From the NCBI GenBank assembly GCA_027886175.1, contig JAJNNQ010000023.1, forward strand, positions 6,899,001 to 6,963,000: DNA of 64,000 nucleotides. Reading direction: 5' to 3'. Below, piece after piece: positions 27,101-63,600 of the stretch (its first letter is position 1; every line of letters starts with the position of its first letter). Source of the stretch: Phylloscopus collybita (lineage: Eukaryota > Chordata > Aves > Passeriformes > Phylloscopidae). The notes below the pieces were generated by a model that worked only from the letters and a program-made list of their open reading frames with translations, was not told the origin of the DNA and did not search any database. The translations under genes were made by a program, and so were the position numbers.

Positions 27101-30100
27101 GCTTCCAGCCTGGGAATGGCAGGCTGGGATGGAGGCAGCTGTGCCTTGTCCTGTCCCTGGAGCCAGGGTCATGCTGGGATGCTCCCGGCACTGGCATGTG
27201 GGATGGGGAATGGAGAGAAGCTGGGGAGCCCTGGGACTGGGCCCTTCCTGCTGTGGCTGCAGCCTGTCTCTGGTGGGGGACACTCGGACTGGGATCCCTG
27301 ACCCAGCACAAGGGGGATGGAGCTCCAGGTGCTGCAGGGATGGATCACAGCCGGTGGGATCTGAGCCACCCCCACATCCCACACCCTGAGCCAGCCACAC
27401 CACCCCAAGCCGAGGAGGGGACCAGGAGCAGCCCCTCTGCATCATCCCCTGGGAAGCCCATCCCACAAACCCTGCCCTGCTGCCTGGCCAGACCCGGACC
27501 CCCAGCCCCTGCCACGGTTCTCTCCCCTGTTCTGCAGACATGGGGAGCTTCGAGGACAGCGAGACGCAGCAGAGCGTGTCCCATGGGGAGGCGGCCGTCA
27601 TCCGCGCGCCCCGCATCGCCAGCTTCCCGCAGCCCCAGGTCACCTGGTTCCGCGACGGGAGGAAGATCTCCCCCAGCAGCCGCATGTGAGCACCCCCAGG
27701 ATCCACCGGGAACCCCCCTGGAGCCCCCCAGCATCCCGGGGGCTGCCTTTCCCCTTGTCCCCCACGCGAAGGGTGTTTAACCAACATCTCCAGCACATCG
27801 TGCTAAAACTCAGGGACATGCTCGGTGACTAATGACTGTGTTTGTCACCAGAGAAAGGGATTTCCTAACAAAAAATGAAAACAAGAGGGAGAGAGGGAGG
27901 AAGGCAAGGGAGAGGGTGGGACAGAGACAAGCATGGCACACACCCGTGTGCCAGGTGTCCCCACGGAACTGTGGCAGATCCAGGTGCTGCCGGAGCCCTG
28001 GCAGCCACAGCCTGCAGGAATTGAATTTGTAACCCCCATTATGCAGGAATTGAACTGGTCTCCTTTCGATTTGCAAAGCGGGATTGAGGAGATAAAACTC
28101 CTTTATCTCATATTTAATGGTAAAAAAAACCATCTTCCCCACAGCATTTTATGTTTCCGGCAGATTAGATTGCTCCATTAAGTAAAAAATGAAAAAAAAA
28201 AAAAAAAAAAAAAGAGGAGAAATGCTTGGAATCTCCACCATCCTTTGGGATGGTCAGAGGGACAGAGGGGTGCAGGGCTTGGTCCCCCCATCCTGGGGTT
28301 GGCACCTGGGGCAGGTGTGGGGGAGGCTGGAGGTCCCACGTGGGTGCCCCCAGGCAGGTGAGGGTGCTGGGTGGGGAGCAAGGGATGGATTCACTGCCAC
28401 GACCCCCTTGTCCCCCAGAGCCACCACGCTGGAGAACACCCTGGTCATCCTGTCCACGGTGGCGCCGGACGCGGGACGTTACTACGTGCAGGCGGTGAAT
28501 GACAAGAACGGGGACAACAAGACGAGCCAGCCCATCACCCTGACTGTGGCCAGTGAGTGTGGGGGGCACTGCCCCCGCTCCCCCCATCCCCTGCCTTGCC
28601 CCCAAATTCCATTTGCAGTAAATCTCTTCAGAGGCTCTGGCTTCTGCTGACTTAACAGTTCAGCTGGCTCAGAATTTATCTAGGAGCCCGTGGCTGTGCT
28701 GCAGGCGCTGGTGTGTCACAGGCAGAGCTGCTCCAGCTGCATCCAGCCCCAGGATGGGCTGTGGAATGGGGGCTGCAGTGTCACCCCATGGACACCCTCC
28801 TCACCCCTGTCCCTGTCCCCCTGTCAGCTCCTGGTGTTCTGGAGCAGCCTCTGCCTGGGGGACACCCCTGTGGCTTCATCCCTCCCGTTCTTTGGGCCCT
28901 CCAGGATTTCCAGGGACCTCCCAGGCCCTGGGTGGTGACATCCCATCCCATGGGACGTGCCCTGAAGTGACATCAGCCTGTCACACTCTCCCCCATCTCC
29001 CCTCCTGCTGCTGCACGGGGCTAGGATAGGTTATCTCTGTCTGTGGCGGGCTCTGCCTGTCTCCCATCCCCATTAATCTGTTTTCCCATCCCTCGGCATC
29101 CTGGAGCGCCATAAACATCCCGGAGCCCCTGTTTATGGATTCAGCTCTATCAGCAGCTTTCGAGCCGATCGCGATTTTACAGCGCCTACACGAGGGTTTT
29201 TTATTGTTGCCATCATTTTGCTTTATGGACTCCCTGCTCCCTCCTCCCTGCTGCCACCAGCCTGGTGGCCCTGCCCAGGCGTGCCGGGGCTCCCACGGGA
29301 GGACACAGCTTAGGGACACCTGGGAAAGCACCCCGATGCCACCAGGATGGCATCAGGTCCCTGTCACCTTTGTCTCCTCCAAGCAGAGCAGCTGGGGGTT
29401 TGGGTGCCCTCTCTGGGGACACCCCAGGGTGGGCAGGGGATGCTCATGGCTGTCCCTCTGGCCTCCTTCTCCCCAGACGTGGGTGGCCCAGCTGATCCCA
29501 TCGCACCCACCATCATTGTCCCACCCAGGAACACCAGCGTGGTGGCTGGGACCTCGGAGGTGACCATGGAGTGTGTGGCCAATGCCAGGTGAGCCGGGGT
29601 GGGGATGGGGATGGGGAATCTCCCTGTTGGCATTGCCCAGCCTTGGGGTTGGGTGTCCCTAAATCCATTCCCACCATGCTTCTGGAACCTGTGCAATGGA
29701 GGGAGGTCCCTTCCCACCTGAGTCCTGCAGGATGGAGGGAGCTGGGATCCTCCAGGGAAGCTGGAGCTGGCTCTTGACACGCCCCTGGCCCCCCAGGCCA
29801 CTGATCAAGCTGCACATCATCTGGAAGAAGGATGGGGTGCCCGTGTCCAGCGGGATCAGTGACTACAGCCGCCGGCTGACCATCCTGCACCCCACTCTGA
29901 GTGACAGCGGCTTCTACGAGTGCGAGGCTGTGCTGCGCAGCAGCAGTGTCCCCGCCGTGACTGCCGGCGCCTACCTGTCCGTGCTGGGTGAGCTCCTGCC
30001 CATGGGCACCTCCCTGTCCGTGCTGGGTGAGCTCCTGCCCGTGCTGGGTGAGCTCCTGCCCATGCTGGGTGAGCTCCTGTCTGTGCTGGGTGAGCTCCTG

Positions 30101-33100
30101 CCCATGCTGGTGAGCTCCTGCCCCCAGGCACCTCCCTGTCTGTGCTGGGTGAGCTCCTGCCCATAGGCACCTCCCTGTGCTTGCTGGGTGAGCTCCTGTC
30201 CATGCTGGGTGAGCTCCTCCTGTCCGTGCTGGGTGAGCTACTGCCCCTGGGCACCCCCCTGTCCGTGCTGGGTGAGCTCCTGTCTGTGCTGGGTGAGCTC
30301 CTGCCCCATGGCACCTCCCTATCTGTGCTGGGTGAGCTCCTGTCCATGCTAGGTGAGCTCCTCCCCACAAGCAGCCCAGAACCACGTGTGCCATGAGCTG
30401 GGGTGGGCTCAGCCCTGGGGCTGGGATGGGAGGTGACAGGAGGAGCACTGGTCAGCCCAAGGACCCTGGGGAGAGGCTCTGTCTCCCTTCCTATTTCCTG
30501 GTTCCCTTGGCAGAGCCCCCACAGTTCATCAGGGAGCCAGAGAGGCACATCATGGCCGAGATGGAGAAGGTGGTGGCCATCCCCTGCCAAGCCAAGGGTG
30601 AGCTGCTCCCCGGCACCCTCTGTGTGCTGCTGCCATCCCGTGCCTGACGTAGCTGTACCCCTGCAGGCGTCCCCCCTCCCGAGATGGCCTGGTACAAGGA
30701 TGCTGCCCTCCTGCACCTGGAGAAGATGTCCCGCTTCCAGCTGCTGGAGGATGGCAGCCTGCAGATCAGCGGGCTGCTCCCTGATGACACCGGAATGTTC
30801 CAGTGCTTCGCCCGCAACGCGGCCGGCGAGGTGCAGACCACCACGTACCTGGCTGTGACCAGTAGGTGCCAGTCCCCCTCTGCCCTGGGGGTGCCACCTC
30901 TGGGTGGTGGGCGGGATGTGCCCCTGGATGAGTCCCACATGGGGCTCAGGCACCCCAGGAAATTCTGGGTCAGGCCCAGGCTGGGCACAGGGAGGGAATT
31001 CAGGGGGGGGCTGTGCGCCTCTGTGCCCCACAGGCATCGCCCCCAACATCACGCGGGGTCCCCAGGACAGCACGGTGATCGATGGCATGTCTGTCATCCT
31101 CAACTGCGAGACGTCGGGGGCGCCGCGCCCGGCCATCACCTGGCAGAAAGGTAAAGGGCTGGGGACAAGCCTGTCCTCTGAGCCCTGCCCTGGGGCTCGG
31201 TGACCACCACAACGGTGGCCATGGCGCTGATGGGGCTCTGCCGTGTCCCCAGGGGAGCGGGTCCTGGCCAGCGGCTCCGTGCAGCTGCCGCGCTTCACCC
31301 TGCTGGAGTCGGGCAGTCTCCTGGTGAGCCCCGCGCACCTGCCCGACGCCGGCACCTACACCTGCCTGGCCACCAACTCCCGTGGTGTGGATGAGGCCTC
31401 TGCAGACCTGGTGGTCTGGGGTAAGGGACTCACGCTGGGCCCGTGTCACCTACAGCCAGGAGGGAGGGACCCTGTCTGGCTCCAGGCACCACCCCGGGTG
31501 ATGTGGGATGGAGCTCTCTGGGGGTGGGTGCTGGGTTTTGGGGTGCAAAGGGGGACAGCCCCCTGCTGGTGCCACCCCTGCAGTGCCTGTGATTCGTTGT
31601 GTCCCCCCGCAGCAAGGACACGGATCACAGACCCGCCACAGGACCAGAGTGTCATCAAAGGCACCAAGGCTGTCATGAGCTGCGGGGTCACCCACGACCC
31701 CAGCGTGGACGTCAGGTGAGTGAGAGGGTTGGGAAGTCCAGGCACCCCTGGCTGCTCTCACCACTGTCTTGGGGAGGGAGATGGGGGTCCTCCTCCTCAG
31801 CCTCGCGCTGGTGGTCCTGCAGTGCCACCTGCTGCCCTGTGACCGAGGCCTCTGGTCCCCTCTGCTCACTGGGGACCTGCGGGGCACTGGCACACCTGGG
31901 TCCCCCTGGCACAGGTACGTCTGGGAGAAGGACGGGGCACCGCTGGGCCCCGAGAGTGGCCCTCGGGTGCGCCTGGACGAGGTGGGCACCCTGCACATCT
32001 CCCAGACCTGGTCGGGTGACATCGGCACCTACACCTGCAAGGTGATCTCGGCTGGGGGCAACGACTCGCGCAGCGCCCACCTCCGTGTCCGGTGAGACCC
32101 CGCCCACCCCATCGATACATCCCCGCCTGGGGCTGTGCCCCCTCCCTCCTGCCCTCCCTAACCCCCCTGTCCAGGCAGCTCCCCCACGCCCCCGAGAGCC
32201 CAGTGGCCGCCCTGAGCTCGCAGGAGAAACGGGCCATCAACCTCACCTGGGCCAAGCCCTTTGACGGCAACAGCCCCCTGCTCCGCTACATCGTGGAGGT
32301 CTCCGAGAACAGTAAGGGGCTGCTCCCACCCCCTGGCACTGCTGGCACTGGGACAAGTCCCCAGCGTCACCCTGGTGCAGGGAACACCCCAGGGAGCTTG
32401 GGGACCCCGGGCAGTGTCCTGCAGGTCAGGTCCTCACCCTGCTGTCTCCTCTTCCCCCAGACGCGCCCTGGACCGTGCTGCTGGCCAGCGTGGACCCCGA
32501 GGTGACATCGGTGACAGTGCGAGGCTTGGTCCCCGCCCGCTCCTACCAGTTCCGCCTGTGTGCTGTAAATGACGTGGGCAGGGGGCAGTTCAGCAAGGAC
32601 ACGGAGAGGTGAGTCCTGGCCGGGGCTCCTGGGGGTGCTGGCGGCCCTGGGTGCTCACCCTGCCCTGTCCCTGCAGGGTGTCCCTGCCCGAGGAGCCGCC
32701 CTCTGCGCCCCCGCAGAACGTCATCGCCAGCGGCCGCACCAACCAGTCCATCATGATCCAGTGGCAGCCACCCCCTGAGAGCCACCAGAATGGGGTCCTC
32801 AAAGGCTACATCATCCGGTAGGAGCCAGCAGGGATGCCCAAGGGCCCCAAACCTGGTGTGGGTGGGGATAATGGCAGCTCTGATGGCTCCCGGTCCCCAG
32901 GTACTGCCTGGCTGGGCTGCCCGTGGGGTACCAGTTCAAGAACATCACCAATGCTGAGGTCAACAACCTCCTTCTGGAGGACCTCATCATCTGGACCAAC
33001 TACGAGATCGAGGTGGCTGCCTACAACAGCGCCGGCCTGGGGGTCTACAGCATGAAGGTGACGGAGTGGACCCTGCAGGGAGGTAGGCAGGCACAATCAG

Positions 33101-60679: not shown

Positions 60680-63600
60680 ATGATGCAGGAGCTGGTGACT
60701 GGCATGGAAAAGATCAGGATTGACTCAGAGGCTGATGTGGAGGAGCTCAGAACTCGGCCCCTGCCCTTCCCAGGGGTGGACAGTAAGTTGGGGACATTTT
60801 TGGAGGGTGACAGGGCTGTAGGAGCTTTTGGGGTTCTCCTCCTTCTTCCCTCCAGCAACACCTGGGTGGTTTTTGTCTTGGCTCTGGGCATTGCTCCCTC
60901 AGGGATGCAGCTGGCAAAGCTCTTGGAGGGGCTGCCAGGGTCCCCAGTGTCCCAGCACTGGGGGTGGCAGGTGAAGCCCTCCCCACCCCGGGGCTGTAGG
61001 TGCAGGCAGAGCTGGGGCAGTGGGCACAGGCTGGCTGTGACAGGGGTGTCCCAGGTGTGCAGGGCCAGCTGTGGGGCTGGCTGTGACAGGGATGTCCCAG
61101 GTGTGCAGGGCCAGCTGTGGGGCTGGCTGTGACAGGGGTGTCCCAGGTGTGCAGGGTCATCTGTGGGGCTGGCTGTGACAGGGGTGTCCCAGGTGTGCAG
61201 GGTCATCTGTGGGGCTGGCTGTGACAGGGGTGTCCCAGGTGTGCAGGGTCACCTGTGGGGCTGGCTGTGACAGGGGTGTCCCAGGTGTGCAGGGCTGGCT
61301 GTGACAGGGGTGTCCCAGGTGTGCAGGGTCATCTGTGGGGCTGGCTGTGACAGGGGTGTCCCAGGTGTGCAGGGCCAGCTGTGAGGCTGGCTGTGACAGG
61401 GTTGTCCCAGGTGTGCAGGGCCAGCTGTGGGGCTGGCTGTGACAGGGGTGTCCCAGGTGTGCAGGGCTGGCTGTGACAGGGGTGTCCCAGGTGTGCAGGG
61501 CCAGCTGTGACAAGGATGTCCCAGGTGTGCAGGGCCACTCCTGGCACTGTGGGGCCAAGCCCGCGGTGTGCACGCATTGGCTTCGAGGGCTCTGCAAGAG
61601 GGGCGACGGCTGCGATTTCCTGCACGACTGCGAGGCGGGCGGGATGCCCGGGGGCTGTTTCTGCTCCAAGCTCGGTAGGAGCGGGGCTGGGCATTCCCGG
61701 GAGCCTCTCCCGTCCCTCGGGCCTGGCCTGGAGCAAGCGGCTGATGCCACCTCCTGACTGCGGGAAGAAGCGCCACTGTCACCCAGTCAGGGTCACTGTC
61801 CCCACCCACCCCAGCCAAACCTGGCTGTTCTGAGTGTTATAAATGTGAATAAAATAAACGACAAATTTTAAATTTAGTGGTAATTTTAATAGCAATTTAA
61901 TGTAAAATTAAGTATATACGAAAATTTGGCAATGATTATTTAAATCCGGTGAAGGTTTTGATAAGGCAGGAGCAAAACTAATCGGGGTACGGGGAGGGCT
62001 TTTTACTTTATGTACAAAACAGAGCAATTTAAACTATACTTATCTACTCTATGCTAATACCTATTTATCAATGTTTTTCGTAAGTTTTTTCTTATTTTTT
62101 GATTCTAAAAATTTATGTTACCATATTGTATGGCACATGCTTGACTTGTTGCTAGGGGGTCTTTTGTCTTCTTTTGGTGGTTTTTTGGATGAAGGCTTAC
62201 ATTTTTTTCATTGTCTTCTGAATAACCTTACAGGCTGCGCATGTGCCCCAAGCCTTGTGTTAAACATTGTATTCTAAAAATAAGCTTTATAAAAACACAA
62301 CTTAAATTCTGTACTTGGAACCATTCTAATTGTCCATCTCAAGGCCGATTTTCCAATCATCCTAAGACTTATTCTGTTGTGGGATATTTTACTTATCTCA
62401 AACTACATCTTGTATCCTATTTTTTTTTATAAACATCTGCAAACATTTCTTTTGTGACACTAATCAAAAATCGTTTACTTTTTTTTCTAAAATATTAATA
62501 TAGTTACAATTTAGCTAGCATGAAATCGTATTCATTTATCACAGCAGGGACACGCCCATTCCTCGAGCGATTCCCGCTGCGTTCAGCTCGAGCGAGCATT
62601 GTCCCCAAATGTCCCACGCCTTGCTCCCGCAGGTGAGTGCCGCGACGACGACTGTCCCTTCCTGCACGTCGGTGCCACCGCCAGCCCCGCGGGCTGTCCC
62701 TGGTACGACCGAGGCTTCTGCAGGCACGGTGAGCGGGCACGGGGGGGATCGGGGCTCGGGGCTGAGCCCGGAACCCGGTGGGGATTGGGGCTCGGGGCTG
62801 AGCCCGGAACCCGGTGGGGATTGGGGCTCGGGGCTGAGCCCGGAACCCGGTGGGGATTGGGGCTCGGGGCTGAGCCCGGAACCCGGTGGGGATTGGGGCT
62901 CGGGGCTGCAGGAGCTGCTGGGGCTCGGGGCTGAGCCCAGAACCCGGTGGGGACTGGGGCTGAGCCCAGAACCCGGTGGGGATTGGGGCTCGGGGCTGAG
63001 CCCAGAACCCGGTGGGGACTGGGGCTCGGGGCTGAGCCCAGAACCCGGTGGGGACTGGGGCTCGGGGCTGAGCCCAGAACCCGGTGGGGACTGGGGCTCG
63101 GGGCTGAGCCCAGAACCCGGTGGGGACTGGGGCTCGGGGCTGAGCCCAGAACCCGGTGGGGACTGGGGCTCGGGGCTGAGCCCAGAACCCGGTGGGGACT
63201 GGGGCTCGGGGCTGAGCCCAGAACCCGGTGGGGATTGGGGCTGAGCCCAGAACCCGGCGGGGATTCAGGGCTGCAGGGGAAGCAGAGCTCCCACAATCCT
63301 GGGGTGCTGCAGTTCCCACAGCCCTGAGTGTCCTGCCAGGCTGGCACTGAATCCTCAGAGGGGAAACTGAGGCAAGGACAAAGACAAAAGGCACTCTTTA
63401 GTCTCAGGAACAGTCCCACAGTTTAATGCAGAACCTACACTTTGGGGTCCTGACGAGAGTAAGAGGCCGAGCACGTGGCTTGGAGTGGTTTTGTGTCCTT
63501 TGGGAAGGGGAGGGGGGAGGTGAGGGGTCACCCGGCCAATGGGGACTGACCCAGGGGGACGTGAGGCACAGGTGGTGTCAAGTGAGTGGCGTAGGGATTC

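What the first reader, a model, noticed from the sequence alone, without database searches (positions are those of the whole stretch)
29980..30366. Tandem array of 14 splice donors in SDK2 intron 7
Seen: the end of exon 7 with its donor is repeated so that GTGAGCT occurs 14 times in about 380 bases. Units of 21 and 39 bases keep the first five donors in one phase, so donor choice would add 13, 20, 27 or 34 residues of the type [13 protein letters not shown] between Ig3 and Ig4, in the homophilic recognition region. A later one-base loss breaks the phase. Inference: this could create length isoforms of a synaptic recognition protein, or individuals may differ in copy number. It may equally be ignored by the splicing machinery in favour of the first donor.
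Basis: partly seen in the sequence, partly recalled or inferred. Interest (0 to 1): 0.8.

Follow-up and report, generated by a model that had tools for sequence, protein, structure and literature searches.

The report
Repeated splice-donor minisatellite in bird SDK2
In this genome, which looks like a bird's, a short stretch spanning the end of one SDK2 exon and the start of the next intron has been copied into 14 near-identical splice sites, a local repeat expansion of a kind already described in birds, and nothing yet shows that the extra sites are used.

Summary
In detail: fourteen GTGAGCT sites lie at 29988-30353, mostly 39 or 21 bases apart, in sidekick-2. The 39-base unit is the exon's last 22 bases plus the intron's first 17. 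Donors 2-5 would insert 13, 20, 27 or 34 residues in frame; donors 6-7 shift the frame; donors 8-14 include a stop. The insertion point corresponds to mouse L285/E286, at the Ig3-4:Ig3-4 contact. Among 128 related proteins retrieved, 57 read through this junction and none shows a second copy. Of 18 aligned, 11 fit best after the LAST donor. The array is therefore probably a lineage-specific expansion. A 2026 chicken study describes such arrays as 'exon stuttering', and human IFI6 uses repeat units as donors. I had no RNA data and saw no clear sign of coding constraint. The donors are nearly equal in strength, so low-level use of donors 2-5 is plausible; regulated isoforms are unsupported. Verdict: real, a new example of a known kind.

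The parts
29797..29987 (+).
   Evidence: AG before 29797; translation matches mouse SDK2 chain
29966..30367 (+). minisatellite of 39- and 21-base units that begins in the last 22 bases of the exon
   Evidence: Tandem Repeats Finder rows with periods 39, 21, 60; unit listing
29988..29994 (+). donor 1, at the exon end shared with relatives
30027..30096 (+). donors 2-5 (30027, 30048, 30069, 30090), same phase; would add 13, 20, 27, 34 residues
30110..30155 (+). donors 6 and 7 (30110, 30149), phase shifted after the 20-base unit
   Evidence: donor 6 has CTGGTGAGC instead of TGGGTGAGC
30188..30359 (+). donors 8-14 (30188, 30209, 30233, 30272, 30293, 30332, 30353); use would include the stop TAG at 30164-30166
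30128..30148 (+). possible 21-nt in-frame microexon (acceptor-like TGCCCCCAG before it, donor 7 after it); hypothetical
   Evidence: sequence and frame check; no RNA evidence
30167..30187 (+). second possible 21-nt in-frame microexon (TGCCCATAG before it, donor 8 after it); hypothetical
   Evidence: no RNA evidence
30353..30513 (+). single-copy remainder of the intron, continuous with the intron of relatives
   Evidence: 11 of 18 aligned read-through frames fit best here
30514..30597 (+). next SDK2 exon (start of Ig4)
30667..30826 (+). first 160 nt of the following SDK2 exon, as used in the frame tests (its end was not mapped)

Best explanation
A young, lineage-specific minisatellite made by repeated local duplication of a 39-bp segment straddling the exon/intron junction (22 bases of exon plus 17 of intron). 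The 21-base units look like internal 18-base contractions of the 39-base unit. This is 'exon stuttering' as described for chicken. Likely working: the spliceosome meets 14 donors of nearly equal strength. Most mRNA is probably joined from donor 1, or from one of the first few donors that keep the exon short. Leaky use of donors 2-5 would give a minority of longer Ig3-Ig4 linkers, and use of donors 6-14 would give frame-shifted or stop-bearing mRNA that would be degraded. No selected function is needed. Shown: array structure, exon origin, frames, absence in the relatives sampled. Inferred: duplication mechanism, age, donor usage, lack of function.
For: Exon end recurs 5 times in the intron at 18-20/22; the second unit matches the junction at 36/39. 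Relatives: of 128 proteins retrieved by two searches, 57 read through the junction and 0 of 57 has a second copy within 45 residues; 0 of 128 holds more than one of the array's peptide motifs. Of 18 aligned, 11 fit best after donors 13/14. No clear coding signature in the units. No excess RNA structure (z -0.13). Another minisatellite starts 11 bases after a donor in a CPSF4-like gene of the same window, and one in L016 starts at a possible exon end, judged by eye. The same class is described in PMC12954441: copied blocks span the exon-intron border and carry the donor.
Against: The chicken phenomenon is concentrated on dot chromosomes (190 of 236 introns; 10 on other microchromosomes), while this contig is 12.01 Mb. 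By that paper's cut-off (hit of at least 20 bases, above 42.1 bits) this locus would be missed: the best exon-intron hit here is 14 bases, 28.2 bits. Of the 18 aligned frames 7 do not fit best after the last donor, among them P0004, whose exon looks bird-like. Equal donor strength makes 'only donor 1 is used' far from certain. The relatives are mostly unnamed protein frames, and short-read assemblies break at repeats.
Confidence: 0.78

Rival explanations
1. A working isoform generator: donors 2-5 are used at substantial, perhaps cell-type-specific levels, giving SDK2 proteins with 13-34 extra residues between Ig3 and Ig4 that alter dimer geometry or strength.
For: Donors 1-5 share the identical 9-mer TGGGTGAGC and equal U1 duplex energy, -9.3 kcal/mol. 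Additions are in frame and stop-free. The insertion sits beside residues corresponding to mouse E286 and P287. Precedent: human IFI6 isoforms from repeat units used as donors.
Against: No RNA. No clear third-position bias. 9 of 13 extra donors are out of frame. No insert in any of the 6 spliced relatives retrieved (P0001, P0002, P0006, P0013, P0015, P0018), of which the named ones are a lemur, a kiwi, a frog and two fishes. Array not seen in relatives.
Confidence: 0.13
2. A brake on SDK2: downstream donors (6-14) are often chosen, giving frame-shifted or stop-bearing mRNA that is degraded, so array length tunes SDK2 dosage between individuals.
For: 9 of 14 donors lead to frameshift or stop. 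The last donor, 30353 (TAGGTGAGC), has marginally the best U1 pairing, -9.5. That intron-proximal donors can win when strengths are equal is recalled, not tested.
Against: Exon length would rise from 191 to 313-556 nt. No RNA data. Strong loss would be expected to be removed by selection in a synaptic gene (inference).
Confidence: 0.06
3. Assembly or collapse artefact.
For: Repeats of this kind are error-prone; PMC12954441 warns of this.
Against: Units differ in sequence and length, with 13 variable positions within the 21- and 39-base classes. No N bases. The exact copy number may still be wrong.
Confidence: 0.03

Closest known systems
'Exon stuttering' in chicken introns (PMC12954441, Genome Biol Evol 2026; sections 7 and 9 read in full, section 8 part 1 of 2, other passages)
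   Same: Local tandem copies of an exon edge with its splice donor, confined to the adjacent intron, imperfect units of tens of bases, GC-rich setting.
   Different: Here the exon part is short (22 bases), the contig is 12 Mb, and the locus falls below that screen's cut-off. Copy-number variation untested. SDK2 does not occur in the main text; the supplement listing the 115 genes was not read.
IFI6 (6-16) minisatellite that provides multiple splice donors (Turri 1995; the paper is not held; its title and a sentence about it seen in PMC4526556, passages)
   Same: Repeat units that act as alternative donors; that the additions are in frame there is recalled.
   Different: Use of the extra donors is reported for IFI6, not shown here. 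Unit length and repeat number of IFI6 are recalled, not read.
Internal tandem repeats at exon-intron boundaries of human duplicated genes (PMC2812944, passages)
   Same: Minisatellite expansion at a boundary can alter splicing.
   Different: Those lie in segmental duplications and are reported to form novel introns.

Membership tests
Avian exon stuttering (PMC12954441) | Intron holds tandem, imperfect copies of the adjacent exon edge, spanning the exon-intron border | tested here: met
Avian exon stuttering (PMC12954441) | Passes the published screen: blastn-short hit of at least 20 bases above 42.1 bits | tested here: not met
   best hit 14 bases, 28.2 bits; cut-off read. I take this as a detection threshold of the screen, not a definition of the phenomenon
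Avian exon stuttering (PMC12954441) | Exon body itself unaltered | tested here: met
   the exon to 29987 aligns to mouse SDK2 without gaps
Avian exon stuttering (PMC12954441) | Location preferentially on dot chromosomes | tested here: inconclusive
   contig of 12.01 Mb, chromosome not named; the paper has 46 of 236 introns off the dots
Avian exon stuttering (PMC12954441) | Length varies between individuals | not testable with these tools
   one assembly only
Minisatellite with multiple used splice donors (IFI6 type) | Repeat units carry a donor-like sequence and begin near the exon end | tested here: met
Minisatellite with multiple used splice donors (IFI6 type) | Transcripts use more than one unit as donor | not testable with these tools
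   no RNA data for this species

The most novel reading that the evidence does not exclude
A minisatellite has turned one constitutive donor of SDK2 into a length-variable, multi-donor cassette, so that individuals of this species differ in the set of Ig3-Ig4 linker isoforms of a synaptic recognition protein; two array units may also have gained acceptor-like ends, making 21-nt in-frame microexons.
Probability: 0.12. Interest if true: 0.75.

Novelty: new member of a known kind. Interest (0 to 1): 0.33.

Why it matters
It is a clean natural experiment on donor choice: 12 identical 9-mer donors and two near-identical ones in series, in one gene, on a 12-Mb contig rather than the dot chromosomes where most such arrays were described. 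If donors 2-5 are used, a repeat would be editing the dimer interface of a synaptic adhesion protein. If only donor 1 is used, the locus shows how strongly position overrides donor strength.

Tried and rejected
Coding constraint on the units: no clear third-position bias (6, 5 and 2 variable sites at third, first and second positions, from the six 21-base and five 39-base units; the 20- and 24-base units were left out, and the codon frame applies only up to the phase shift). RNA structure as a selector: fold no better than shuffles (7 of 20 shuffles at least as good); all donors predicted closed, 9-base unpaired probability at most 0.004. A dispersed repeat family: only two weak hits elsewhere in the own genome (counts are lower bounds by the tool's own note). 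L002 is a different array of 20-base units without GTGAG. L003 is an 18-base array of CTGGGTGAGCTGGTTTT on another contig; no Pfam domain in three of its frames. Other alleles or species with the array: a search with the array's own frame gave one hit at E 0.72. A genome-wide census of donor arrays could not be made: the pattern search did not complete. A first frame table used exon starts off by one; one search replaced it. Donor-strength programs such as MaxEnt were not at hand.

Literature searches and papers found: (4; 2; 2; 8; 14; 4; 7; 1; 1), 96 (10 listed of 11,141; only PMC12954441 of the 10 holds the stuttering terms). I do not claim that the SDK2 array is absent from print; only the main text of PMC12954441 was searched for SDK2 (0 hits).

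Full report
Observation. The window holds 14 copies of GTGAGCT between 29988 and 30353. Chance is excluded for practical purposes: in 20 simulated windows no 380-base stretch held more than 2. The window lies on contig C23 (12.01 Mb) of a 1.247 Gb genome in 517 contigs. GC is 58-69% in 4-kb steps.

Gene. The joined exons 29797-29987, 30514-30597 and the one from 30667 match mouse sidekick-2 over all 157 residues given (E 1.8e-87) and sidekick-1 less well (9.3e-61). In the numbering of PMC5045292 the junction lies between L285 and E286. I inferred this by fitting the alignment to residues named in section 7 of that paper: Q289, E293 and R296 in Ig4, Y245, N253 and T255 in Ig3. That section reports hydrogen bonds N253-P287 (both proteins) and T255-E286 (Sdk2) in the Ig3-4:Ig3-4 part of the dimer, which is formed in some crystal forms only; the Discussion says it adds only a small amount of binding energy (passages). 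In this species N253 is replaced by H, while the counterparts of T255, E286, P287, Q289, E293 and R296 are kept.

Structure of the array. The 39-base unit is the last 22 bases of the exon plus the first 17 of the intron; the second unit matches the junction at 36 of 39. The 21-base unit reads as the 39-base unit without an 18-base middle part (by eye). The order of spacings is 39, 21, 21, 21, 20, 39, 39, 21, 24, 39, 21, 39, 21. The exon's last 22 bases recur 5 times in the intron at 18-20 identities; in the window outside 29966-30380 the best match is 16.

Origin. Two protein searches gave 147 hits (120 listed) and 55 hits (all listed), together 128 different proteins. In 63 of these 128 the end of this exon could be found: 6 are spliced to the next exon with no insert, 57 run on into the intron, and 0 of 57 shows a second copy of the junction within 45 residues, some tails being shorter than that; 0 of 128 holds more than one of the array's peptide motifs. 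For 18 read-through frames that fitted a narrower pattern I compared the tail with the DNA after each of the 14 donors: 11 of 18 fit best after donors 13/14, which share most of the compared DNA (scores 24-71; one of the 11, P0040, looks mammal-like and may be chance). Seven do not: five that look mammal-like, one with a tail of only 8 residues, and P0004, whose exon looks bird-like. No shuffled control was run for these scores. I conclude that one donor is the ancestral state and that the old intron start follows the last copy. Most of these proteins carry no species name; that they include birds is inferred from sequence and from the named kiwi protein. Short-read assemblies break at repeats, so absence in them is weak evidence. 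A search with the array's own open frame gave a single hit at E 0.72.

Splicing. Twelve of 14 donors share TGGGTGAGC; 30110 has CTGGTGAGC and 30353 TAGGTGAGC. U1 duplex energies are -9.3 for those 12, -8.1 for 30110 and -9.5 for 30353. Donors 2-5 add 13, 20, 27 and 34 residues. Donors 6 and 7 shift the frame, without a stop in the part tested (84 + 160 nt). Donors 8-14 include the stop at 30164-30166. Two units end in AG before GCACCTCC (30127, 30166) and could define 21-nt in-frame microexons; this is a possibility only. Nothing I measured chooses between donors: no structural difference of note, no clear coding bias. Sidekicks are said to have several splice variants of unknown significance (PMC7479261, passages); the passages seen name none at this site.

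Surroundings. In the window a 36-base array begins at 62740, 11 bases after the donor at 62729 of a CPSF4-like zinc-finger gene. In a 200-kb sample of the same contig (20 stretches, 20 of 80 requested; 2,661 bases read N) 22 minisatellite arrays were found. Two of the 22 hold at least six GTRAG copies on one strand, L007 (7) and L016 (6). On the other strand the L016 array starts at what looks like an exon end, but no protein domain supports that exon. For L007 no exon was looked for. So arrays next to donors may be common here, but arrays proven to copy a donor were not counted. A genome-wide census failed for technical reasons.

Known kinds. [quoted passage not shown] More than 90% of sources lie within 1 base of the exon border. 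It says that donors are copied and may create alternative transcripts; I saw no test of that in the sections read. 183 of 192 such introns vary in length between chickens. The SDK2 locus fits this kind in structure, but is shorter than that screen could detect. IFI6 is the precedent for use of such copies (an introduction that cites Turri 1995).

Judgement. Real, interpretable, a new example of a known kind. The isoform idea is testable with ordinary RNA data, but at present rests on frame arithmetic and equal donor strength.

Noticed in passing
window 61443-62728 (+): Two CCCH zinc-finger exons like CPSF4 (joined: E 6.2e-31 to CPSF4 chain 6fuw_C), diverged; probably the CPSF4L neighbour of SDK2 (name recalled). 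Exon limits not mapped except the donor at 62729.
   Followed up: partly
window 62740-63273: A 36-base minisatellite, about 14 copies, starts 11 bases after a donor of the CPSF4-like gene; unlike the SDK2 array it does not include the donor.
   Followed up: partly
window 61029-61537: 46-base minisatellite, about 10 copies, just upstream of the first CPSF4-like exon.
   Followed up: no
L003 1405-1683 (- strand), contig C31: An 18-base array whose unit also carries CTGGGTGAGCT, about 15 copies; no domain found in three frames, so it may not be at an exon.
   Followed up: partly
L016 5381-5882, contig C23: 83-base array, 6 copies, abutting a possible exon end (AAGAACG then GTGAGTTCC) on the + strand; on the - strand each unit carries CAGCAGGTGAGG.
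   Followed up: partly
window 29856-31355 (-): Antisense frame of 499 codons without a stop runs through exon and array; probably a by-product of high GC.
   Followed up: no
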